Shown: one piece after another, positions 3,323 through 24,338 of the stretch | Layout of the letters: the number at the start of each line of letters is the position of its first letter | Position numbering within the stretch: position 1 is the stretch's first letter | IMG/VR virus record: IMGVR_UViG_3300037258_000213 | Location: 1 to 24,338 of that record | Length of the DNA stretch: 24,338 bases | Strand: one strand, 5' to 3' | Source of the DNA: a virus | Translations under genes and position numbers: made by a program | The notes under the pieces: model-generated | What the model was told of the DNA's origin: nothing | Seen by the model: the letters and a program-made list of their open reading frames with translations, nothing else | Database searches by the model: none

Positions 3323-3339
3323 GCTGAGCGGAGGTGGCC

Positions 3340-5511
3340 ATGCCGAACGTCATCATCTCCGCCGCCGGGGTCCAGGGCCCGCGCGGCAACGGCTGGCTCG
3401 TCAGCGATGGCTCACCAGCCGACACGCTGGGCGTCGACGGCGACTTCTGCCTGGACATGGCGAACCCCGACGCCCCCACCTACTACGGGCCGAAGGCGAA
3501 CGGCACCTGGACCGGGGCCGGGCCCTACACCCTCGGCGGCGGCAGCGTCGGCGCGCTGCTCGCGGCCAACAACCTCGACGACGTCGACAACGTGGCCGCG
3601 GCCCGGACCAGCCTCGGACTCGGCAGCGCAGCCACCCAGGCCGCGAGCGCGTTCGACGCCGCCGGCGCGGCCGCCACCGCGCAGGCCAACGCCGAGACCT
3701 ACACCGTCAGCCAGATCGCCGCCGAGGTCACCAGGGCCAACGGTGCCTACGACGCAGCAGGAGCAGCCAGCGCCGCCCAGGGCGCGGCCGAGACGTACAC
3801 CGGCACGCAGCTGGCCGCCGAGGTGACCCGCGCAAACGCCGCCTACGACGCGGCCGGCGCCGCAGCAGCCGCCCAGGCCGCCGCCGAATCAGCAGCTGCG
3901 GCCGCCTACCTGCCGTTGCAGCCATGGGTGTTCGACGTGACCGCACCGGCGTACGGCGCGAGGGGCAACGGCCAGCTCGTCATCGACGGCGCCATGGGCA
4001 TCGGCTCGGCGGTACTCACCTCCGTCAGCGCCCTGTTCACGAGCAACGACGTCGGCAAGCCAATCCAGGTCAAGGGGGCGGCCGCAACCGGGGTCACCAC
4101 CCTGGTGACGACTGTCGCCTCCTATCAGTCACCAACTCAGGTCACGCTGAACGCTGCCAACGCCACCGGTTCTGCGCTCACCGGCCTGACGGTGCTGTGG
4201 GCATCCGACGACACCTCGGCGATCCAGTCCGCGATCAACGCCGCCATCACCTACGCGCAGGCCCACGGCGGGGCTGCGACCGTCCTGATCCCGGCCGCGG
4301 CCAAGCGGTTCTACGGCATCGCCGGAGCCCTGCAGACGACCGCAGCTGGCAACGCCCAGCTCACCCTCCCCGTCGTCGCCACCACCGGCAACAAGCTGGT
4401 GATCACTTTCCAGGGCGCGGGTGACGGTGCGGCTCAGCAGCACTGGCAGGAAGCCCCGCCGCAGATGTCCGGCAGCACGCTGGTGTCCTTCGGTGTGTTC
4501 GCAAACCCCTCGGCGCAGACCGCGAGCATCAACGCCCACGGCAACCCGTCGCTGCTCGGCGGCCCATCCGAGCCCGGCGGCTACGGCGTCAGCCCCGGTA
4601 CCTTCACCAACGTCCACGTGATCTTGCGTGGACTGAGCCTGCGCACCGTCCACACCGCATGGGGCCTGGGTTACAACGCCTTCGACTTCGATGGCTGCGC
4701 CAACGCCGCACTCCACGACGTCGGTCTGGGCTCGCTCGGCACCGTCGCGAACGGGGACTTCGGCAACCCGTCGCTGTTCGGCACCGGCCTGGTCATCGGC
4801 GGCATCATGCCGATGTCCGGCAACAACGACCTCAGCATCATCGACAACGTCACTGTGTTCGGCGGTTTCACCTACGGCCTGTTCGTCACCGAGCACACTG
4901 ACGTCTACGGCCTGCGGATCCTCTACAGCTGGGCTGGTCTGTGCCCTGTCGGAACGTACGACGGCAGCGTTGGCAGCACCCACGCGATCCGGGGCTTCGT
5001 CAGCGTCGAGGCCTGCCACTACACGATGTACCTCATCGGTGCCGGGTCCGGCGGCGTCGGCCCGTTCCTCCATCTGCTGCTCGACTCCGAAGGCACCGTA
5101 TTGTTCGGTGACAACGACTCCGGCACCGCATCGGCATCCGCGAAGGGCCAGGTAGTGCTGACCGGCGAGGTCTCACTGCCGGTCAACTTCGACTGGCCGC
5201 CGGGCTACGACGTCGTCAACGACCAGGTGTCATTCGCGAGTACGGCCGTGAGCAGCGCCTATACGGTCACGCCACTGGACGAGGTCATCGAGGCCAACGC
5301 CACCAGCGCGCCCTTCACAGTCACGCTCCCGACCGCGGTCGGCCGGTCAAGGCGCGTCGTCGTGATCAAGACGGACTCCGGCGGCAACGCTGTCACGGTG
5401 GCCACGACCGGTGGCCAGACGATCAATGGCGCATCGACGAAGTCCCTGGCTTCGCAGTGGTCGGCCATCGAGGTCACCCCGTCCGCTGCCGGCAACTGGC
5501 TCGACCTCTGA
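3340..5511 (+). CDS. Tail spike / tail fibre with pectate-lyase-like beta-helix
   Basis: The start is ATG 3340, five bases after GGAGG (3330-3334); an in-frame GTG at 3334 overlaps that ribosome site. The 723-residue protein has four parts. First is a short collagen-like head (GVQGPRGNGW, residues about 11-20) with a YYGPKANGTW...PYTLGGG module. Second is an Ala-rich stalk of 32-residue repeats (102-188). Third, from about residue 198, is a tailspike beta-helix of the Pectate_lyase_3 type (VTAPAYGARGNG near 200, DDTSAIQSAINAA near 290, then many short beta turns). Last is a C-terminal beta module (about 637-723; FTVTLPTAVGRS, GGQTINGASTKSL, NWLDL) common at fibre ends. It likely binds or degrades host surface glycan. 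No catalytic residues can be assigned. Its place upstream of the terminase is unusual. Confidence 0.85.
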   Translation: MPNVIISAAGVQGPRGNGWLVSDGSPADTLGVDGDFCLDMANPDAPTYYGPKANGTWTGAGPYTLGGGSVGALLAANNLDDVDNVAAARTSLGLGSAATQAASAFDAAGAAATAQANAETYTVSQIAAEVTRANGAYDAAGAASAAQGAAETYTGTQLAAEVTRANAAYDAAGAAAAAQAAAESAAAAAYLPLQPWVFDVTAPAYGARGNGQLVIDGAMGIGSAVLTSVSALFTSNDVGKPIQVKGAAATGVTTLVTTVASYQSPTQVTLNAANATGSALTGLTVLWASDDTSAIQSAINAAITYAQAHGGAATVLIPAAAKRFYGIAGALQTTAAGNAQLTLPVVATTGNKLVITFQGAGDGAAQQHWQEAPPQMSGSTLVSFGVFANPSAQTASINAHGNPSLLGGPSEPGGYGVSPGTFTNVHVILRGLSLRTVHTAWGLGYNAFDFDGCANAALHDVGLGSLGTVANGDFGNPSLFGTGLVIGGIMPMSGNNDLSIIDNVTVFGGFTYGLFVTEHTDVYGLRILYSWAGLCPVGTYDGSVGSTHAIRGFVSVEACHYTMYLIGAGSGGVGPFLHLLLDSEGTVLFGDNDSGTASASAKGQVVLTGEVSLPVNFDWPPGYDVVNDQVSFASTAVSSAYTVTPLDEVIEANATSAPFTVTLPTAVGRSRRVVVIKTDSGGNAVTVATTGGQTINGASTKSLASQWSAIEVTPSAAGNWLDL
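3643..3900 (+). repeat. 32-residue Ala-rich repeats in the tail-spike stalk (two full copies and one partial)
   Basis: Units at 3643-3738, 3739-3834 and a partial one from 3835 encode residues 102-133, 134-165 and 166-188. Each begins with a Y/F-DAAGAA core (AFDAAGAAATAQ, AYDAAGAASAAQ, AYDAAGAAAAAQ), and the first two end in an AAEVTRA motif. A trimeric coiled-coil stalk linking head and beta-helix is the likely structure. Confidence 0.75.
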
Positions 5512-5524
5512 GCCATCATCAACT

Positions 5525-5555
5525 CCTCACCGGGCCGGGCAGCTCGGTGGGGTTT
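5525..5555 (+). terminator. Hairpin with short T run after the tail spike
   Basis: CCTCACCG (5525-5532) pairs with CGGTGGGG (5545-5552), with one G-T wobble, and is followed by TTT. It lies 14 bp after the tail-spike stop at 5511. This is a moderately good intrinsic terminator for the spike transcript. A second small inverted repeat, CCCGCG/CGCGGG, follows at about 5556-5581. Confidence 0.5.
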
Positions 5556-5623: not shown

Positions 5624-5643
5624 CCAAACGGAAGGCGGTGACC

Positions 5644-5925
5644 GTGGACGAGCAGAAAGCCGACGCCTACAAGCGCCTCGACGAAGCCCTCCGCGAAGTC
5701 TGCCGCCTCGACGGCTGGGAAGGGCTGCTCACCGACTGGGTCGTCGTGGCTGCCTGCCAGTCCTTCGACGCGAACGGCCACTCCATCACCGATGTCGGCC
5801 AGGTCCTCCCCGGCGGCGGTGGTGACATCCCCAACTACCGCATCCAGGGACTACTCGACTACGCGCTCACCGGCTACCGCGCACAGGTCGGCTACTTGCC
5901 AGTTCCGGGCGAGGACGAGCCGTGA
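5644..5925 (+). CDS. Small conserved-looking actinophage protein of unknown function
   Basis: The start is GTG 5644, eight bases after GGAAGG (5630-5635); a GTG at 5638 is too close to that site. The 93-residue acidic protein (starts MDEQKADAYKRLDEALREV) has a helical N-terminal half containing LLTDWVVVAACQS. A central Gly-rich turn (VLPGGGGDIPNYR) and a helix, IQGLLDYALTGYRAQVGYL, follow. I have the impression of a recurrent small Streptomyces-phage protein with this GLLDYALT motif, but assign no function. Its TGA overlaps the GTG of the Tad2-domain gene (GTGA), so the two are translationally coupled. Confidence 0.65.
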   Translation: MDEQKADAYKRLDEALREVCRLDGWEGLLTDWVVVAACQSFDANGHSITDVGQVLPGGGGDIPNYRIQGLLDYALTGYRAQVGYLPVPGEDEP

Positions 5926-6398
5926 CGATGACGCCTTCGCTGTCCGGCCGCTGTTCGCGGTGCGGCCAGCCCGTGCTGCTCACCGAAGACCGCTGGACCC
6001 ACCCCGGCGACCGCTGCCCGGCCGCCGACTTCCTCCCCTCACGAAGGACGCCCATGTCCCGCCACCCGCACCCCCATCCCCACGCCGAGCCCGCATCCAC
6101 GCCCCATGCGCCGGAGCAGCCGCTGGACTTCGGCGCAGCACTCACCGCCCTCAAGGCTGGCCACAAGGTCGCCCGCACCGGCTGGAACGGCAAGGGCATG
6201 TTCGTCGTGCACCAGGCCGGATACCCCGACGGCATCCCGATCAACGCCAACACTGCCCGGGCCACCGGGATCGCCGAGGGCACCGTCTGCAAGTTCCGGC
6301 CGTACCTGATGATGCTCACCGCCGACGGCGAGTTCGTGCCGTGGGTCATCTCGCAGACCGACGCGCTGGCCGACGACTGGCAGATCGTCGCGGCGTAG
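5922..6398 (+). CDS. Tad2-like (DUF2829) anti-Thoeris domain protein with N-terminal zinc-knuckle extension
   Basis: Residues about 68-157 match the DUF2829/Tad2 family: LDFGAALTALKAGHKVARTGWNGKGMF at the start, then CKFRPYLMMLTADGEFVPWV, and the end motif SQTDALADDWQIV. Tad2 proteins are phage sponges that sequester the TIR-made signal (gcADPR) of the Thoeris defence system; some members also bind cyclic nucleotides. The full ORF starts at GTG 5922, overlapping the previous stop. It carries an extra 44-residue segment with CSRC (11-14) and HPGDRC (27-32), which looks like a small zinc knuckle, then a His/Pro-rich linker. ATG 6054 (residue 45) has its own AAGGA five bases upstream, giving a 114-residue Tad2-only product. 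The domain call is made from motif memory and is strong; target specificity is inference. Confidence 0.85.
   Translation: MTMTPSLSGRCSRCGQPVLLTEDRWTHPGDRCPAADFLPSRRTPMSRHPHPHPHAEPASTPHAPEQPLDFGAALTALKAGHKVARTGWNGKGMFVVHQAGYPDGIPINANTARATGIAEGTVCKFRPYLMMLTADGEFVPWVISQTDALADDWQIVAA
6044..6056 (+). promoter_or_regulatory. Internal ribosome binding site giving a Tad2-only start
   Basis: AAGGA (6044-6048), then five bases, then ATG (6054-6056), in frame inside the Tad2-domain gene. This spacing is as good as that of neighbouring genes. A short product without the zinc knuckle may be made as well as, or instead of, the long one. Confidence 0.5.
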
Positions 6399-6461: not shown

Positions 6462-6950
6462 ATGCACCCCAGAGCGATCACCCCGGAGAAGCGCGCGGCA
6501 ATCCTCAAGGACATCAAAGCCGTCCCCAAGACCGGCAAGAGCCGCAACCAGATCGCGCGCGACCGCGGCGTCAGCATGAGCACCGTCACCAAAATCGCGG
6601 GCAAATCAGGCCACGGCGACGCCTTCGACCGGACCCGCACCGCAGCCGCCACCCGCGCAGTCGTCATCGACTCCCGCGCCCGCCGCGAGCAGCTCCGCAA
6701 CGACCTACTCGACGACGCCCAACGCCTCCGTGAGCGCGCCTGGTCATCACACGAGGCGTACATCAGCACCCCCCAAGGCGCCGAAAGAGTCGTCCTGGAA
6801 CTGCCGCCGCTGCAGGACACCCGGGCCGCGTTCAACGCCATCGGGATCTGCATCGACAAGAGCCTGCGCCTCGAGCAGTTCGACACCGACGACTCCGGGG
6901 CGAGCGCAGTCGACGAGTGGGTGCGGAGCCTCATCGGAGAGAGCCGGTAG
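6462..6950 (+). CDS. terS: Terminase small subunit-like protein
   Basis: ATG 6462 follows AAGGA (6451-6455) by six bases. The 162-residue protein has an N-terminal helix-turn-helix (SRNQIARDRGVSMSTVTKIA, residues about 28-47), the DNA-recognition fold of small terminase subunits. A charged helical middle (RARREQLRNDLLDDAQRLRERAW) and a C-terminal helical part suited to ring assembly follow. The call rests on the HTH, the size and its position three bases before the large terminase gene. It would recognise the packaging site and feed DNA to the motor. A general DNA-binding regulator with the same HTH is the main alternative. Confidence 0.8.
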   Translation: MHPRAITPEKRAAILKDIKAVPKTGKSRNQIARDRGVSMSTVTKIAGKSGHGDAFDRTRTAAATRAVVIDSRARREQLRNDLLDDAQRLRERAWSSHEAYISTPQGAERVVLELPPLQDTRAAFNAIGICIDKSLRLEQFDTDDSGASAVDEWVRSLIGESR

Positions 6951-8756: not shown

Positions 8757-10487
8757 GTGGCCGTTGTCGATGACCGCATGCGGATGCTGATCCCGACGGG
8801 CGACTGCGCTTGGCCGCCGCCGCAGTACAACCCGATCACGCTGCAGATGCGGACCTGGGACGCCTGGTGGTCCGGCGACCCCGACAAGCTCCAGTGGGTC
8901 TACTACAACCTCGGCGACAACTCCCCGGTCGGGCGCAGCTTCTTCGCGACGACCGGTGAGAAGAACCTGCCGATGCCGCGCCCGGGCCAGTTCCGGGGCG
9001 GCCTGCTCGGATCGATCACCTACACGTTCTGGGGGGCGCCGGTCCCGCCCGGTGAGAAGCGCAGCAAACTCCACGTCCCGATCGCGTCCGACATCGCCGC
9101 GACCAGCGCCGACATGCTGTTCTCGAAGGCGCCAGTGGTGACCGCGTCGAACCCGGCGAACCAGTCTGCGCTCGACGCCCTCATGGACGACGGCATGCAC
9201 GCCACCCTGCTGGAGGGCGCCGAGAACGCCTCCGCGCTGGGCGGCGCGTACCTGCGGGTGGCCTGGGACACCGACGTCTCCGACGAGCCGATGATCGACG
9301 TCGTGCCGGCGGACGCCGCGGTGCCGCTGTTCTCTCACGGCAAGCTCCTGGGTGTCACGTTCTGGCGGATCGTCTCTGACGACGGCTCAGAGGTCGTCCG
9401 GCACCTGGAGACCCACGTCCCCGGCCAGAACGCGATCTTCCACAACGTGTACGTCGGTGACCAGACCGACCTCGGCCGCGTCACCCCGCTCACGGACATC
9501 CCCGCGACGGCGCAGTTCGCGCAGTACCTGTCCGAGGGCAACGCGATCACGTTCCCAGACATGCCGAAGGACGCCAGCACCGTCGTCTACATCCCCAACA
9601 TGCGCCCCAACAAGATCTGGCGGGACCTCGGGCCGACGGTCGCGCCGCTGGGCCGGTCGGACTACTCCGGTGTCGAGATCCTCATGGACGCCCTCGACGA
9701 GGTCTACAGCTCCTGGCAGCGCGACATCCGCTTGGCCAAGGCCCGGCTGATCGTCCCTCAGCAGTACCTGGACAACCTCGGCCGCGGGAAGGGGGCCGTG
9801 TTCGACCCGGACCGCCAGGTGTACAGCCCCGTCTCCGCGATGACCAGCGGCGGCGGCAGCGTCAGCAACGACATCATGGCCAACCAGTTCCAGATCCGCG
9901 TCGAAGAGCACCAAGCCACGGCAGCCGACTACATGAACCGGATCATCCAGGGAGCGGGCTACTCGGGGCAGTCCTTCGGCGAGTACGACGGGGCCGGCGG
10001 CACGATGACCGCGACGGAGATCCGGGCCCGGGAACGCAAGTCCCTGATCACGTCGTCGAAGAAGCGCCTCTACATGCGGCCCGGGCTGCGGGACATCTTC
10101 TACGGCTGGCTCGCCGTGAAGCAGAAGATCTTCAACGACAGCACGGTCACCCCGGAGCGCCCCGAAGTGGAGCTGCCGGACACGGTCGTGCCGGAGGTCC
10201 TGGAGCTCGCCCAGGCAGCATCTGCGCTCGCCCAGGCCGACGCGGCGTCGAAGGAGACGCTGGTGCGGATGGTGCATCCGGACTGGTCCGAGGCCGAGGT
10301 GCAGCGCGAGGTCCGCATGATCTACGCCGAGACCGGACTCGACCTGGCGGGCCGCGCGAAGATCACGATCGCGCCGCCGATGAACAGCGACGAGACGATC
10401 TCTCAGGAAGTCCAGGAACTCGCGGACGCCTCCCAAGCCCCGGCGGTCGCCGAGCTTCCCGAGACCGGCGACACCGACGAGGAGTGA
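8757..10487 (+). CDS. Portal protein (SPP1 gp6-like)
   Basis: GTG 8757 follows a G-rich site (8745-8752). The 576-residue length is normal for a portal. Features seen are the aromatic N-terminus (TWDAWWSGDPDKLQWVYYN), the early segment KLHVPIASDIAATSADMLF with its membrane-distal wing pattern, and LDEVYSSWQRDIRLAKARLIV. TATEIRARERKS (residues about 415-426) is the conserved Thr/Glu-rich region seen in SPP1-family portals. The dodecameric portal is the DNA channel at the special vertex and the docking site for terminase and connectors. Its place after terL and before the minor capsid gene supports the call. Confidence 0.92.
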   Translation: MAVVDDRMRMLIPTGDCAWPPPQYNPITLQMRTWDAWWSGDPDKLQWVYYNLGDNSPVGRSFFATTGEKNLPMPRPGQFRGGLLGSITYTFWGAPVPPGEKRSKLHVPIASDIAATSADMLFSKAPVVTASNPANQSALDALMDDGMHATLLEGAENASALGGAYLRVAWDTDVSDEPMIDVVPADAAVPLFSHGKLLGVTFWRIVSDDGSEVVRHLETHVPGQNAIFHNVYVGDQTDLGRVTPLTDIPATAQFAQYLSEGNAITFPDMPKDASTVVYIPNMRPNKIWRDLGPTVAPLGRSDYSGVEILMDALDEVYSSWQRDIRLAKARLIVPQQYLDNLGRGKGAVFDPDRQVYSPVSAMTSGGGSVSNDIMANQFQIRVEEHQATAADYMNRIIQGAGYSGQSFGEYDGAGGTMTATEIRARERKSLITSSKKRLYMRPGLRDIFYGWLAVKQKIFNDSTVTPERPEVELPDTVVPEVLELAQAASALAQADAASKETLVRMVHPDWSEAEVQREVRMIYAETGLDLAGRAKITIAPPMNSDETISQEVQELADASQAPAVAELPETGDTDEE

Positions 10488-14892: not shown

Positions 14893-15786
14893 GTGATTTC
14901 CATTTCGGTACTAGCGTTCAAGCCCGAAATTTGGAGCAAGGTCATCCTCGCGGCCCTCCAGAAGAACCTCGTCTTCGGCGGCAGCGGGATCGTCAACAAC
15001 GACTACGAGGGCGAGATCAGCGGCCCCGGCAACGTCGTCCACATCACCCAGTTCGGCGACCCCGTCATCACGCCGTACACGCCGAACTCGACCCTCGTCT
15101 ACCAGGCCCTGAACGACGCCGGCCTCGACCTCAACGTCGACCAGTCGTTCAGCTTCTCCTTCAGCGTCGACGACGTCGACCGGCGCCAGGCCGCCGGCGA
15201 CATGCAGACGTACCTGGAAGAGCGCGCCAGCTACAAGATGGCGGACACCGCCGACCAGTACATCGCTGGCCTGTACACCGGCGTTGCCTCGGGCAACACC
15301 GTCGGCACCTCCGGTGCCCCGATCACCCCGGCGCTGTACGCCAGCGCCACCCCGGCGGATCTCTACCAGAAGGTCCTGCTGCCGCTGAAGGTCCAGCTCT
15401 CCGAGGCCAACATCCCGATGGCCGGCCGGTACGTCGTGGTCCCGCCGTGGGCCGAGGGCCTCCTGGAGCAGACCCAGGCCTTCATCGCGATCACCGACAT
15501 GCAGGGCGAGCCCTCGAAGGTCTTCCAGAACGGCATGATCGGCCGCGTCGCCGGCTTCGACGTCTACGTCAGCAACAACGCGATCAACTACTCGGGGTCG
15601 AACTGGATCGTGCAGGCCGGTCACCCGATGGCGATCACCTACGCCGAGCAGATCGTCCAGACCGAGGCGCTGCGCCTGCAGACGACCTTCGCCGACGGCG
15701 TCCGCGGCCTGCACGTCTTCGGCGCGAAGCTGATCCGCCCGGACGCCATCGCCGTGGCGTACGTCACCCGTCCCGCCGGCATCTGA
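14893..15786 (+). CDS. Major capsid protein
   Basis: A 297-residue protein starting MISISVLAFKPEIWSKVIL. This is the form of HK97-fold coat proteins of actinophages in which SVLAF.PE.WS is followed by VFGG...NNDYEGEI. Other expected elements are DVDRRQAAGDMQTYLEERASYKMADTAD-type spine helix residues (seen in 15174-15260), GRYVVVPPWAEGLL, and a C-terminal RPDAIAVAYVTRP strand. It forms the icosahedral shell. The GTG at 14893 is the only usable start because TAG lies two codons upstream in frame. Its ribosome site is poor (CTAGGCG) for the most abundant virion protein. The 128-bp gap to the HNH gene is also unusually AT-rich, which suggests the insertion changed this leader. Confidence 0.92.
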   Translation: MISISVLAFKPEIWSKVILAALQKNLVFGGSGIVNNDYEGEISGPGNVVHITQFGDPVITPYTPNSTLVYQALNDAGLDLNVDQSFSFSFSVDDVDRRQAAGDMQTYLEERASYKMADTADQYIAGLYTGVASGNTVGTSGAPITPALYASATPADLYQKVLLPLKVQLSEANIPMAGRYVVVPPWAEGLLEQTQAFIAITDMQGEPSKVFQNGMIGRVAGFDVYVSNNAINYSGSNWIVQAGHPMAITYAEQIVQTEALRLQTTFADGVRGLHVFGAKLIRPDAIAVAYVTRPAGI

Positions 15787-20684: not shown

Positions 20685-23600
20685 ATGCCTGAGGGCTTCA
20701 AGGTCGCCTCTGCCTGGGTGTCCGTCAGCCCGGACACCGAGGGCTTCAAGGAGGAACTGCAGGGCGCGCTGGACGAGGCCGCAGCCGGTGTCTCGGCCGA
20801 GGTTCGGGTCGGCCTGGACATCTCGGAGCTGGACGAGAAGGCGGATCAGGCCCGGGCGACGGTCGACGCGCTCGATGAGGCGGTGGCCGAGCCGCGAGTC
20901 GACTTGGACTCCGCGGACCTGGACGCGAAGGCCGACGACGCCCGCGCGAAGCTCGACGAACTCGACGCGAAGTCCGCGCGGCCCGAGGTCACGCTGGAAT
21001 CGGCGGACCTCGACGCCAAGACCGACGACGCCAAGGCCAAGCTCGACGCCCTGGACGCCAGGCGCGCTGACCCGCGCCTGAGCCTGGACACCACCGAGTT
21101 CGATGAGCGCTACGCCGCCGCGGTCGCGAAGCTGCAGGCCCTGGGTGGTCTGTCGTCCTCTCCTCGGCTCAGCGCCTCCAGCGGGGGCGGCGGCACGGGT
21201 GGTGGTGAGGGGGGTGGCAGTGCCGAGGTCGGGCTGGCGGGCCCGCTGCTGCTGGGCCTTGGTGCCTCGATGCCGGGCCTCGGCGGCACGGCCACCGGTC
21301 TGGGCCTGCTCGGGCTGACGGGCGGCATGGCCCTCGGGCCAGTCGCCTCGGCTCTGTCGGCGGCTCACCAGGCCAGCCTCAACGTCGGGTTGACGCCCGC
21401 CGAGTTGGCGTCGACGGCGGAGTCCAATGCGGTCCAGAACCAGCAGGCGCAGCTCGGCGTCACCCAGGCCCGGGAGCAGCAATCGCAGGACGCGGTCACC
21501 AGCGCGGCGGCGATCGAGTCCGCGGAGACGAACCTGGCGTCGGTGACGCGCAATGCGGCGGCGGCGCAGGTGCAGGCGCTGCAGTCGGTGGTGCAGGCGG
21601 AGCAGGGCGTCGAGCAGGCCAACTACGGCCTCAGCGAAGCCCAGTACAACCTGACGCAGGCGTGGGTGCAGGCGCGTGAGCAGATCGTTCAACTCAACGA
21701 CCAGCTCGCCGATTCCAAACTGTCGGTGCAGGCGGCGCAGTTGGCGGTGTCGCAGGCCGAGTACCAGCAGCGCCTGACCGACCAGAACGCCTACTCCACC
21801 CTGCTGGAACGCGAGCAGGCGTCGCTGGCCGTCAAGCAGGCGCAGCAGCAGCTCAAGGACGCCACCGACCAGCAGACCGACGCCACCTACGCGGCGAACC
21901 TCGCGAACAAGCAGGGCGTCGACGGCTCGCAGACCGTCATCCAGGCCAAGCAGGGCGTCGTCGCCGCCACCCAGGCGCAGGCCGACGCGCAGAAGCAGTT
22001 GGCGATCGCTCAGCAGCAGTTGACGGTCACGGAGGAGAACAACGCCGCGCAGGTCAAGCAGGCGCAGCTGCAGCTGAGGGAAGCCGAGGAACAGGCCGCG
22101 TTCCAGAGGATGATGGACGCGCAGGCCGTGGCGGTGGCCGAGCGGAACGTCACCAACACCCTCAAGGAGCAGCAGCTCCAGATGGCGGCGACGAAGTCGA
22201 CGTCGAACGAGGCCGCGAACCAGTTCCTCAAGGACATGTCCCGGTTGTCTCCGGCCGGGCGGGCGTTCGTCAACCAGATCCTGGGGATGAAGGGCGCGTT
22301 CAAGGGCCTGGAGACCACCGCGCAGAACACGGTGCTGCCCGGGTTCTCGATCTGGGCTGCGGGGATCGCGAAACTGCTGCCGAACCTAACCAGCGGCGTC
22401 GGCAGCATGGGGCGCGCGATCAGTGCGTCGTTCGGCCAGTTCGGCAAGACCATGCAGACGCCGGCGGCCGCGCATGTCCTGGACGGGCTGCTGGCCAACG
22501 GTGTCCGCTTCGCGAAGCTCGTGCTTCCTCCTTTCGCGCAGTTCGTGCAGGAGTTGGGGCTGATCGGCTCCAAGAAGGGTGCCGTCGACGGCATCGCCGG
22601 GGTCCTGGCTGGCTTCGGTCACGGGCTGACGGGGCTGGCCGCATCGGTGGGGCACTTCACTCCGGTGATCAACCAGTTCCTGATGGCGGCGGGTCACATC
22701 ATCGCGGCCGTCGGCCCTGGCCTGGGTGTGATCATCGGCGTGGTGGCGACGGCTCTGGGGCCGCTGTCGCGGTACCTGAACGCGCATCCGAACGGCACCG
22801 TCGTCAAGGTCCTCGGTGACATCATCGCCGCCCTGCTGACGATGAAACTGCTGGTCAAGTGGGGCAAGGCCCCGTTTGAGGCGATCAACTCTGGATACAA
22901 GATGATCACCGGGCTGCCGGGGAAGGTCAGCGGCATCGCCCAGAAGATCTCCGGTGCCTGGACGTCGGGCCTTGGCCGCGCGAAGGGCGCGTGGGCGATG
23001 CTGTTCGGGCGCGCCGAGATCACGGACGCCGAGGGCAACGTCATCCCCGCCATCGAGGGCCTGGGCCCGAGGATCGCACGGGTCGTCGGCGGCTGGGGCG
23101 GCCGAATCGGCTCCGCTCTCAAGGGCGCTATGCCGACCAGCTTCGACGCCAAGCTCCTGCTGCAGTCCGCGAAGGACTTCGGGTCGAAGATCGGCGGCTA
23201 CTTCGCGTCCGCCGGGTCCTGGTTCGCGAATGACCTGCCCGCGTTGACGAGCAGGGGTGCCAGCGCGCTGAAGGGCTTCGCCTCGGACGGCATGCAGGCC
23301 ATCGGGGCGTGGGGCGGCAAGGTCGGCTCGATGATGTCCGGCGCCGGTAGCGCAGTGGCGTCGTTCGTCAGCGGCTTCGGCGCCAAGCTCGCCACCGCGG
23401 CGACCGCGACAGTGACGTGGATCGCCGAGCAGACCGTGGCTGCGGCGACGTTCATTGCCGAGAACGTCGCCGAGGCCGCCGCGGCCACGGTCGCGTTCGT
23501 GGCGGAGAACTTGGCGACGTTGGGGATCATCGCCGGGATCGCGCTGCTCGTGACCGCGATCATCTACCTGGCGACGCACTGGAAGCAGGTCTGGGCCGAT

Positions 23601-24338
23601 ATCGAAGCGGGCGCCCTGTGGCTGTGGCACAAGGTCCTCGACCCGATGTGGCAGGGCATCAGCGCCGGAGCGCACTGGCTGTACGAAGAAGCGATCCAGC
23701 CGGTGTTCTCGGCGATCTCGCTGCAGTTCCGGCAGTTGGAGGGCGACGCGTCGTGGCTGTGGCACAACGTGTTCGACCCGATGTGGCAGGGCATCGAGGC
23801 TGGGGCCCGCGGCTTCGTCGCGGGGTTCAAGGCGGTCTGGGGGATGCTGGAGTCGGTCTTCAAGACACCGGTGAACTTCTTGATCGAGACGGTGTACGAC
23901 AAGGGCATCGCCAAGCTGTGGGACGAGGTGGTCCAGAGCATCGGCCTGGGTGCCCTGAAGCTGCCGACGATCACCCCGCTGGCGAAGGGCGGTGTACTGC
24001 CCGGCTATGCGCCGGGTCACGACAGCGTCCACGCGGTTCTGTCGCCAGGCGAGGGTGTTCTAGTGCCGGAGGCCGTGCGCGCGATCGGCCCGGGCACCGT
24101 GGACTCGCTCAACGCCACCTACGGCGGCGGCCGGGTCTCCAGCGGCAACCACTTCGCCGGGGGCGGCATCATCGGGTCGATCGGGCACGCCATCACTGGT
24201 GGCCTGTCGAAGGCCTACGACGTCGCGAAGATCGTCGCTGCGGTCGCGACCGGCAACGGCACCGCGCTGAGCAACGCCCTCGACGCGCTGATCAGCACTC
24301 ATGCCGCCGGGAACCTGGGCAAGATGATGACCGGCCTG
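20685..24338 (+). CDS. Tape measure protein (3'-truncated by the window)
   Basis: ATG 20685 follows GGGGGTG. At least 1218 residues are visible without a stop. N-terminal: EGFKVASAWVSVSPDTEGFK, then four 30-residue repeats (41-160) and a Gly-rich linker with a hydrophobic segment (183-224). The middle, about residues 235-520, is a long Gln/Ala-rich coiled coil (QAREQQSQDAV..., LAVKQAQQQLKDATDQQ). Hydrophobic helices follow at about 665-690 and 943-967 (GIIAGIALLVTAIIYLATHW). A duplicated WLWH...DPMWQGI unit and SPGEGVLVPEAVRAIGPGTV occur near the right edge, the latter a common tape-measure motif. The protein sets tail length and reaches the cell membrane on infection. No lytic peptidase domain is visible in the part present. 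Confidence 0.93.
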   Translation, partial: MPEGFKVASAWVSVSPDTEGFKEELQGALDEAAAGVSAEVRVGLDISELDEKADQARATVDALDEAVAEPRVDLDSADLDAKADDARAKLDELDAKSARPEVTLESADLDAKTDDAKAKLDALDARRADPRLSLDTTEFDERYAAAVAKLQALGGLSSSPRLSASSGGGGTGGGEGGGSAEVGLAGPLLLGLGASMPGLGGTATGLGLLGLTGGMALGPVASALSAAHQASLNVGLTPAELASTAESNAVQNQQAQLGVTQAREQQSQDAVTSAAAIESAETNLASVTRNAAAAQVQALQSVVQAEQGVEQANYGLSEAQYNLTQAWVQAREQIVQLNDQLADSKLSVQAAQLAVSQAEYQQRLTDQNAYSTLLEREQASLAVKQAQQQLKDATDQQTDATYAANLANKQGVDGSQTVIQAKQGVVAATQAQADAQKQLAIAQQQLTVTEENNAAQVKQAQLQLREAEEQAAFQRMMDAQAVAVAERNVTNTLKEQQLQMAATKSTSNEAANQFLKDMSRLSPAGRAFVNQILGMKGAFKGLETTAQNTVLPGFSIWAAGIAKLLPNLTSGVGSMGRAISASFGQFGKTMQTPAAAHVLDGLLANGVRFAKLVLPPFAQFVQELGLIGSKKGAVDGIAGVLAGFGHGLTGLAASVGHFTPVINQFLMAAGHIIAAVGPGLGVIIGVVATALGPLSRYLNAHPNGTVVKVLGDIIAALLTMKLLVKWGKAPFEAINSGYKMITGLPGKVSGIAQKISGAWTSGLGRAKGAWAMLFGRAEITDAEGNVIPAIEGLGPRIARVVGGWGGRIGSALKGAMPTSFDAKLLLQSAKDFGSKIGGYFASAGSWFANDLPALTSRGASALKGFASDGMQAIGAWGGKVGSMMSGAGSAVASFVSGFGAKLATAATATVTWIAEQTVAAATFIAENVAEAAAATVAFVAENLATLGIIAGIALLVTAIIYLATHWKQVWADIEAGALWLWHKVLDPMWQGISAGAHWLYEEAIQPVFSAISLQFRQLEGDASWLWHNVFDPMWQGIEAGARGFVAGFKAVWGMLESVFKTPVNFLIETVYDKGIAKLWDEVVQSIGLGALKLPTITPLAKGGVLPGYAPGHDSVHAVLSPGEGVLVPEAVRAIGPGTVDSLNATYGGGRVSSGNHFAGGGIIGSIGHAITGGLSKAYDVAKIVAAVATGNGTALSNALDALISTHAAGNLGKMMTGL
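20805..21164 (+). repeat. Four tandem 30-residue repeats in the tape measure N-terminus
   Basis: Four units of exactly 90 bp encode residues 41-70, 71-100, 101-130 and 131-160. The consensus is a strand (VxLDS), an acidic helix (ADLDAKADDARAKLDELDA) and a terminal proline. Units 2 and 3 are the most similar and unit 4 is degenerate (DTTEFDERYAAAVAKLQAL). An exact unit length with a fixed proline suggests recent duplication of a strand-helix module. Confidence 0.85.
23619..23795 (+). repeat. Duplicated WLWH...DPMWQGI motif in the tape measure
   Basis: The 42-bp segments 23619-23660 and 23754-23795 differ at only three bases and encode WLWHKVLDPMWQGI and WLWHNVFDPMWQGI, 45 residues apart. Aromatic residues at regular spacing in tape measures are thought to contact the tail tube. 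Confidence 0.8.

What the first reader, a model, noticed from the sequence alone, without database searches (positions are those of the whole stretch)
5922..6398. Predicted Thoeris anti-defence protein (Tad2/DUF2829) just before the packaging genes
The C-terminal 90 residues carry the family pattern (FGxALxxLKxGxKVARxGWNGKGMF; RPYLMMLTADGEFVPWV; SQTDxLAxDWxIV). Tad2 proteins neutralise Thoeris by sequestering its TIR-derived nucleotide signal, and some bind CBASS-type cyclic molecules. The sequence shows the domain; activity and ligand are inferred. It is placed with late structural genes rather than an early region, which is unexpected for an anti-defence protein that must act soon after infection.
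Basis: partly seen in the sequence, partly recalled or inferred. Interest (0 to 1): 0.75.

Follow-up and report, generated by a model that had tools for sequence, protein, structure and literature searches.

The report
Phage signal-sponge protein (Tad2 family)
A fragment of a virus that probably infects Streptomyces-like soil bacteria carries a gene for a known type of small protein (Tad2) that soaks up the alarm molecule of a bacterial immune system; it sits beside the genes for filling and building the virus head, which is a usual place for this gene rather than an odd one.

Summary
ORF 5922-6398 (+) carries a complete Tad2-like domain at residues 68-157 (PF11195, E=3.6e-25). The AlphaFold model scores pLDDT above 90 over most of the domain and matches every solved Tad2 (SptTad2, HgmTad2, SPO1, ModTad2; VIA-align Z 11-12.5). 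The residues invariant across relatives lie mainly in the loops reported to line the ligand pocket, and all are present here. The most likely function is a signal-sequestering anti-Thoeris sponge; ligand and activity are inferred.

Two corrections. First, the location is not unexpected. In relatives, tad2 lies near terL far more often than chance (17 of 25 within 5.5 kb, 7.2 expected). Staphylococcal and streptococcal Thoeris sensors are triggered by major capsid proteins (PMC12578639), so expression with head genes fits the timing. Second, the 65-residue N-terminus is doubtful; a start at ATG 6054 is as plausible as 5922.

No solved Tad2 has this motif, so its ligand preference is open. A new member of a known kind.

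The parts
5922..6398 (+). Open reading frame carrying the Tad2-like domain (158 aa from GTG 5922; 114 aa if started at ATG 6054)
   Evidence: PF11195 E=3.6e-25; PHROG 1048 E=1.4e-31
6123..6392 (+). Tad2-like domain, residues 68-157
   Evidence: profile match 69-156; PDB matches 67-156; pLDDT mostly above 90; Z 11-12.5 to solved Tad2 over residues 65-158
6177..6203 (+). Pocket loop between strands beta1 and beta2, residues 86-94 TGWNGKGMF (W88, N89, G92 invariant)
   Evidence: invariant or nearly invariant in 43 relatives; pocket elements as described in PMC12043709; secondary structure
6318..6371 (+). Pocket elements beta3-beta4 loop, beta4, beta4-alpha3 loop and alpha3, residues 133-150 (W141, S144, D147, L149, A150 conserved)
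   Evidence: PMC12043709
6213..6281 (+). Subfamily insert, residues 98-120 QAGYPDGIPINANTARATGIAEG, at about the place where HgmTad2/SptTad2 carry their cyclic-dinucleotide-binding insertion
   Evidence: conserved in 45 non-redundant sequences; absent from the SPO1, ModTad2, HgmTad2 and SptTad2 sequences
6043..6056 (+). GAAGGA ribosome-site match and in-frame ATG (6054) - likely alternative or true start
   Evidence: sequence; no other in-frame start before the domain; N-terminal segment without relatives
5922..6053 (+). Doubtful N-terminal segment with CxxC...H...C pattern, followed by a His/Pro-rich linker
   Evidence: pLDDT about 50-75; no relatives
5638..5925 (+). Upstream gene, DUF7213-like (PHROG 4307), overlaps the GTG start by 4 bases; its relatives lie directly before the terminase gene in Streptomyces phages
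5525..5552 (+). 11-bp hairpin between the tail-spike-like gene and DUF7213, possible end of the preceding transcript (weak)
   Evidence: z -1.8; not flagged as a T-run terminator
6462..6950 (+). Helix-turn-helix protein of PHROG 5536, probable small terminase subunit
   Evidence: the same family directly precedes TerL in L083
6954..8273 (+). Terminase large subunit
8757..10487 (+). Portal protein
14893..15786 (+). Major capsid protein (the kind of protein reported to trigger Thoeris)
   Evidence: PMC12578639

Best explanation
The gene encodes a Tad2-family sponge. By analogy with solved members it should assemble as a tetramer (not tested here) and trap a nucleotide immune signal, most likely a TIR-made ADP-ribose derivative of a Thoeris system (a gcADPR isomer or His-ADPR), in pockets formed between subunits by the GWNGKGMF loop, the VPW strand and the SQTDxLAxDW helix. 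The signal then cannot switch on the Thoeris effector. It is probably transcribed with the packaging and head genes; because Thoeris can be triggered by the major capsid protein, this makes the sponge available when the trigger appears. Shown here: sequence, fold, pocket-element conservation and recurrent gene neighbourhood. Inferred: tetramer, ligand, anti-Thoeris activity and expression time.
For: PF11195 E=3.6e-25. PDB sequence matches to ModTad2, HgmTad2, SptTad2 and SPO1 Tad2. Confident model matching all solved Tad2 with Z 11-12.5, clearly separated from the next row at Z 6.2. Nine invariant and nine nearly invariant columns, most in pocket elements, all kept. Thoeris-type TIR proteins occur in 35 of 395 sampled actinomycete-class genomes, some in ThsB-like tandem pairs. 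Neighbourhood with head and packaging genes. Capsid triggering of Thoeris (PMC12578639).
Against: No binding or infection data. The host, and whether it has Thoeris, are unknown because the window is an uncultured fragment. Among actinobacterial genomes with close Tad2 relatives, only Paractinoplanes (G052) also has ThsB_TIR matches; the two Actinomadura genomes have none. All four Tad2 proteins with solved structures lack the conserved insert found here, so ligand transfer is uncertain.
Confidence: 0.72

Rival explanations
1. It is mainly a cyclic-dinucleotide sponge against CBASS (or binds both classes), like HgmTad2 and SptTad2, using the insert between beta2 and beta5 as a second binding site.
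For: HgmTad2 and SptTad2 bind cGG and other cyclic dinucleotides through an insertion between beta2 and beta5 (PMC12043709). The window protein has a strongly conserved insert in that stretch, and its best structural Z is to SptTad2 with cGG, though tied with the others.
Against: Its insert differs in length and sequence from HgmTad2/SptTad2 (46 residues between GMF and the conserved W, 53 in SptTad2). The tree does not place it with them, although support there is weak.
Confidence: 0.25
2. The insert-bearing subfamily sequesters a different, so far unassigned immune signal.
For: QxGYPxGIPxNxxTAxAxGxxEG is conserved across 45 non-redundant sequences, including positions that were not used to select them (Q98, T111, A112, G116, G120, Y128). 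No solved Tad2 carries it.
Against: The main Tad2 pocket is fully kept, so a known ligand is the simpler reading. The insert may only be structural. Family members tested without a solved structure could not be checked.
Confidence: 0.15
3. It is an anti-CRISPR of the AcrIIA7 type, acting on a type II CRISPR-Cas system.
For: AcrIIA7 carries the same DUF2829/Tad2 domain (PMC6739104), and PDB entries name one protein both AcrIIA7 and HgmTad2.
Against: The AcrIIA7-named protein is crystallised with 1',2'-cADPR and cGG, which points to signal binding. PMC6739104 reports that only one AcrIIA7 homolog occurs in a genome with II-A self-targeting spacers.
Confidence: 0.05
4. It is a virion or head-assembly accessory protein that happens to use the Tad2 fold.
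For: Recurrent position among terminase, portal, minor head and scaffold genes. A weak structural likeness to a phage neck protein (8qkh, Z 6.2, 13% identity).
Against: Position is not fixed: before TerS, after TerL, before scaffold, next to endolysin or replication genes. Pocket elements are the most conserved part. Z 6.2 is in the range the tool calls common.
Confidence: 0.07

Closest known systems
ModTad2 (Myroides odoratus prophage, PDB 9eib/8v3e), which binds His-ADPR and inhibits type II Thoeris (PMC13299392)
   Same: Same fold (Z 12.0, rmsd 3.3, 85 residues, 46% identity in the structural alignment), best sequence match in the PDB (E=4.4e-17), same conserved pocket motifs
   Different: ModTad2 lacks the GYPxGIPxN insert, is shorter (41 against 46 residues between GMF and the conserved W), and has TPSVSD where this protein has VISQTD
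SPO1 Tad2 (gp34.65, PDB 8smf), which binds gcADPR and inhibits type I Thoeris
   Same: Same fold (Z 11-12), same GWNGK.MF and SQTDxLAEDW motifs
   Different: 37-43% identity in the aligned part, no GYP insert; SPO1 tad2 lies at 127 kb of a 132 kb genome
HgmTad2/AcrIIA7 (PDB 8kbi-8kbm) and SptTad2 (PDB 8wjd), which bind cADPR or cyclic dinucleotides
   Same: Same fold (Z 12.1 and 12.5), same GWNGKGMF and WLASQTDMxAxDW motifs
   Different: Longer, different insertion; this protein has the GYPxGIPxNxxTA insert instead
DUF2829 proteins of Brevibacillus phages (Osiris, Jimmer and others)
   Same: 73% identity over residues 82-156, same insert; in Osiris the gene is followed by two ORFs at the end of the linear record, whose other end starts with terS-terL
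   Different: Different host phylum, no His-rich N-terminus, unannotated function
Prophage homolog in Paractinoplanes pyxinae (L083)
   Same: 74% identity; terS-terL-tad2-portal order with the same terminase and portal families
   Different: Gene placed after TerL instead of before TerS; starts directly at the domain

Membership tests
Tad2 / DUF2829 (PF11195) | Profile match above the curated cut-off over the whole domain | tested here: met
   88.7 bits against a cut-off of 25; profile positions 2-73 of 73
Tad2 / DUF2829 (PF11195) | Tad2 fold | tested here: met
   Z 11-12.5 to all solved Tad2 entries, Foldseek E down to 1e-8, next unrelated row Z 6.2
Tad2 / DUF2829 (PF11195) | Conserved residues of the signal-binding pocket elements (beta1-beta2 loop, beta3-beta4 loop, beta4, beta4-alpha3 loop, alpha3) | tested here: met
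   W88, N89, G92, W141, D147 invariant, K91, M93, F94, S144, L149, A150 nearly so; all kept, elements from PMC12043709. Individual ligand contacts could not be read from coordinates.
Tad2 / DUF2829 (PF11195) | Homotetramer | not testable with these tools
   Only monomer prediction was available
Tad2 / DUF2829 (PF11195) | Binds gcADPR, His-ADPR or cyclic dinucleotides without degrading them; restores phage growth on Thoeris or CBASS hosts | not testable with these tools
   Needs binding and infection assays
CDN-binding Tad2 (HgmTad2/SptTad2 type) | Long insertion between beta2 and beta5 forming the CDN site | tested here: inconclusive
   An insert is present in that stretch, but with a different conserved sequence (QxGYPxGIPxNxxTA) and a different length
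AcrIIA7 anti-CRISPR | Inhibits type II-A Cas9 | not testable with these tools
   Shares the domain; activity unknown

The most novel reading that the evidence does not exclude
The protein represents a widespread Tad2 subfamily, marked by a conserved QxGYPxGIPxNxxTAxAxGxxEG insert, that binds a signal other than those known for solved Tad2 proteins, and whose gene is placed in the head and packaging operon so that the sponge is made together with the capsid protein that sets off the defence.
Probability: 0.15. Interest if true: 0.6.

Novelty: new member of a known kind. Interest (0 to 1): 0.36.

Why it matters
It adds a Tad2 sponge in a probable actinomycete phage, a group where the family is rare (5 of 395 sampled host-class genomes). 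It also shows that placement near head and packaging genes recurs in this part of the family, which fits capsid sensing by Thoeris and makes 'sponge made with trigger' directly testable. The conserved insert marks a large subfamily without a solved structure; finding its ligand could point to an unassigned immune signal.

Tried and rejected
Relatives of the N-terminal 68 residues: none in annotated phages at E up to 1 or in viral contigs, so a 'zinc-ribbon fused to Tad2' story was not pursued.

Relatives of the small terminase and DUF7213 in viral contigs, to compare the same backbone with and without tad2: none found with single-sequence queries.

A T-run terminator or sigma-70-like promoter around the gene: none found; a hairpin after the spike gene is only weakly unusual.

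The tree could not place the window with any characterised Tad2 (fork support 66/38), so no ligand was inferred from it.

PADLOC and NCBIfam have no model hitting the gene.

The key Tad2 structure papers were not held, so residue-level ligand contacts rest on a review's description of pocket elements.

The GYP subfamily was picked with a pattern containing Y101, P102, G104, I105, P106 and N108. Their conservation is therefore partly by construction; only the other conserved positions count as evidence.

Full report
What is there. The ORF 5922-6398 (+) is real and encodes 158 aa from GTG 5922. Its residues 69-156 match Pfam PF11195 'Thoeris anti-defense 2-like' over the full profile (88.7 bits, cut-off 25), and PHROG 1048 and 872. 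phmmer against the PDB finds only Tad2 or AcrIIA7 chains: ModTad2 (E=4.4e-17), HgmTad2/AcrIIA7, SptTad2 and SPO1 gp34.65. An AlphaFold2 model made from an alignment of 43 sequences has pLDDT mostly above 90 over the domain. It matches every solved Tad2 with VIA-align Z 11-12.5, with the next row at Z 6.2.

Gene model. The domain begins at about residue 68. The only in-frame start close to it is ATG 6054, five bases behind GAAGGA. The upstream part (5922-6053) holds a CxxC...H...C pattern and leads into a His/Pro-rich linker. It has no relatives, medium to low model confidence, and codon usage that does not decide. The GTG at 5922 overlaps the stop of the upstream gene, as in translational coupling. 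Both starts remain possible; several close relatives have a methionine directly at the start of the domain.

Pocket. A review of sponge proteins describes the Tad2 gcADPR pocket as built from the beta1-beta2 loop, beta3-beta4 loop, beta4, beta4-alpha3 loop and alpha3 of neighbouring protomers (PMC12043709). On the model these are residues 86-93, 133-137, 138-141, 142-144 and 145-149. The invariant columns of the 43-row alignment are G80, R85, W88, N89, G92, W141, D147, D152 and W153, with K91, M93, F94, S144, L149, A150 and others nearly so. Most fall in or beside those elements, and all are kept here.

A subfamily insert. 64 of 95 relatives examined carry the insert seen here; after removing sequences over 85% identical, 45 remain (window included). 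In these, Q98, T111, A112, A114, G116, G120, P127 and Y128, none of which was used to pick them, are 96-100% conserved, besides the selecting residues Y101, P102, G104, I105, P106 and N108. This lies between beta2 and the last strands, the stretch where HgmTad2/SptTad2 have the insertion that binds cyclic dinucleotides (PMC12043709). None of the Tad2/AcrIIA7 sequences in the PDB has this motif (SPO1 sequence). A maximum-likelihood tree separates the window's group from all characterised members, but with weak support (66/38). Ligand preference therefore cannot be read off by homology.

Neighbourhood. The order is tail-spike-like gene, DUF7213, tad2, probable small terminase (PHROG 5536), TerL, portal, minor capsid protein, major capsid protein, tail genes. 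DUF7213 relatives lie directly before the terminase in 69-kb Streptomyces phages. The best TerL matches are Streptomyces phages at 46%, and GC is 69%, so an actinomycete host is likely. The record is an uncultured linear fragment.

Is the location odd? No. In 28 viral contigs of relatives where TerL was found, 12 tad2 genes lie within 3 kb of it (4.3 expected from uniform placement, simulated P=4e-4), 24 of 28 on the same strand. After removing near-identical tad2 genes, 11 of 25 lie within 3 kb (3.9 expected) and 17 of 25 within 5.5 kb (7.2 expected, P=2.5e-5). The uniform null is simple, contigs are fragments, and the rows share ancestry, so the P values are indicative. Among classified immediate neighbours, terminase, portal and head scaffolding are the most frequent families, with some endolysin and replication genes. 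Examples: terS-terL-tad2-portal in Paractinoplanes (L083); protease/VG15-like head protein-tad2-scaffold-SU10 major capsid in an unnamed actinomycete-class genome (L176); the Brevibacillus phage Osiris, with tad2 followed by two ORFs at the end of a record that starts with terS-terL. Staphylococcal and streptococcal Thoeris sensors are activated by the phage major capsid protein (PMC12578639). A sponge co-expressed with head genes would therefore be present when the trigger is made. Expression time is inferred; no transcript data exist.

Targets. ThsB_TIR proteins occur in 35 of 395 sampled genomes of the actinomycete class, and several flank each other or lie beside a ThsC-like HIT protein. 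Thoeris-type targets thus exist in the presumed host group. Tad2 itself is rare there (5 of 395 including the centre genome). Of the named actinobacterial genomes with close tad2, only Paractinoplanes also has ThsB_TIR matches.

Verdict. A bona fide Tad2-family protein, most likely a signal sponge against Thoeris. CBASS signals or an unassigned signal are open alternatives because of the insert. It is a new member of a known kind; the 'unexpected late placement' is not unusual for its relatives.

Noticed in passing
L178:2089-5249 and L179:1733-5780: In two unnamed actinomycete-class genomes, two ThsB_TIR genes flank a gene for an approximately 647-aa protein with a TPR-S domain that no PADLOC model matches: possibly an undescribed Thoeris-like arrangement.
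   Followed up: partly
L181:2560-3905: ThsB-like TIR gene overlapping a gene for a HIT-domain protein (PADLOC ThsC2 and PDC-M50A matches) in another unnamed actinomycete-class genome.
   Followed up: no
window 3334-5511: A tail-spike-like protein (weak pectin-lyase/tail-fibre PHROG matches) lies upstream of the terminase genes instead of after the tail genes.
   Followed up: no
window 20685-24338: The tape-measure protein (cut by the window end) carries a stretch matching endolysin PHROG 971 near residues 1047-1189.
   Followed up: no
L084:11390-12450: About 1 kb of tandem repeat, open in several frames, between tad2 and terS in an Actinomadura prophage.
   Followed up: no
L007:8001-8279: tad2 copy with a duplicated GWN (RAGWNGWNGKGMF) at the pocket loop.
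   Followed up: no
window 5638-5925: DUF7213-like gene whose relatives sit directly before the terminase in about 69-kb Streptomyces phages; function unknown.
   Followed up: partly
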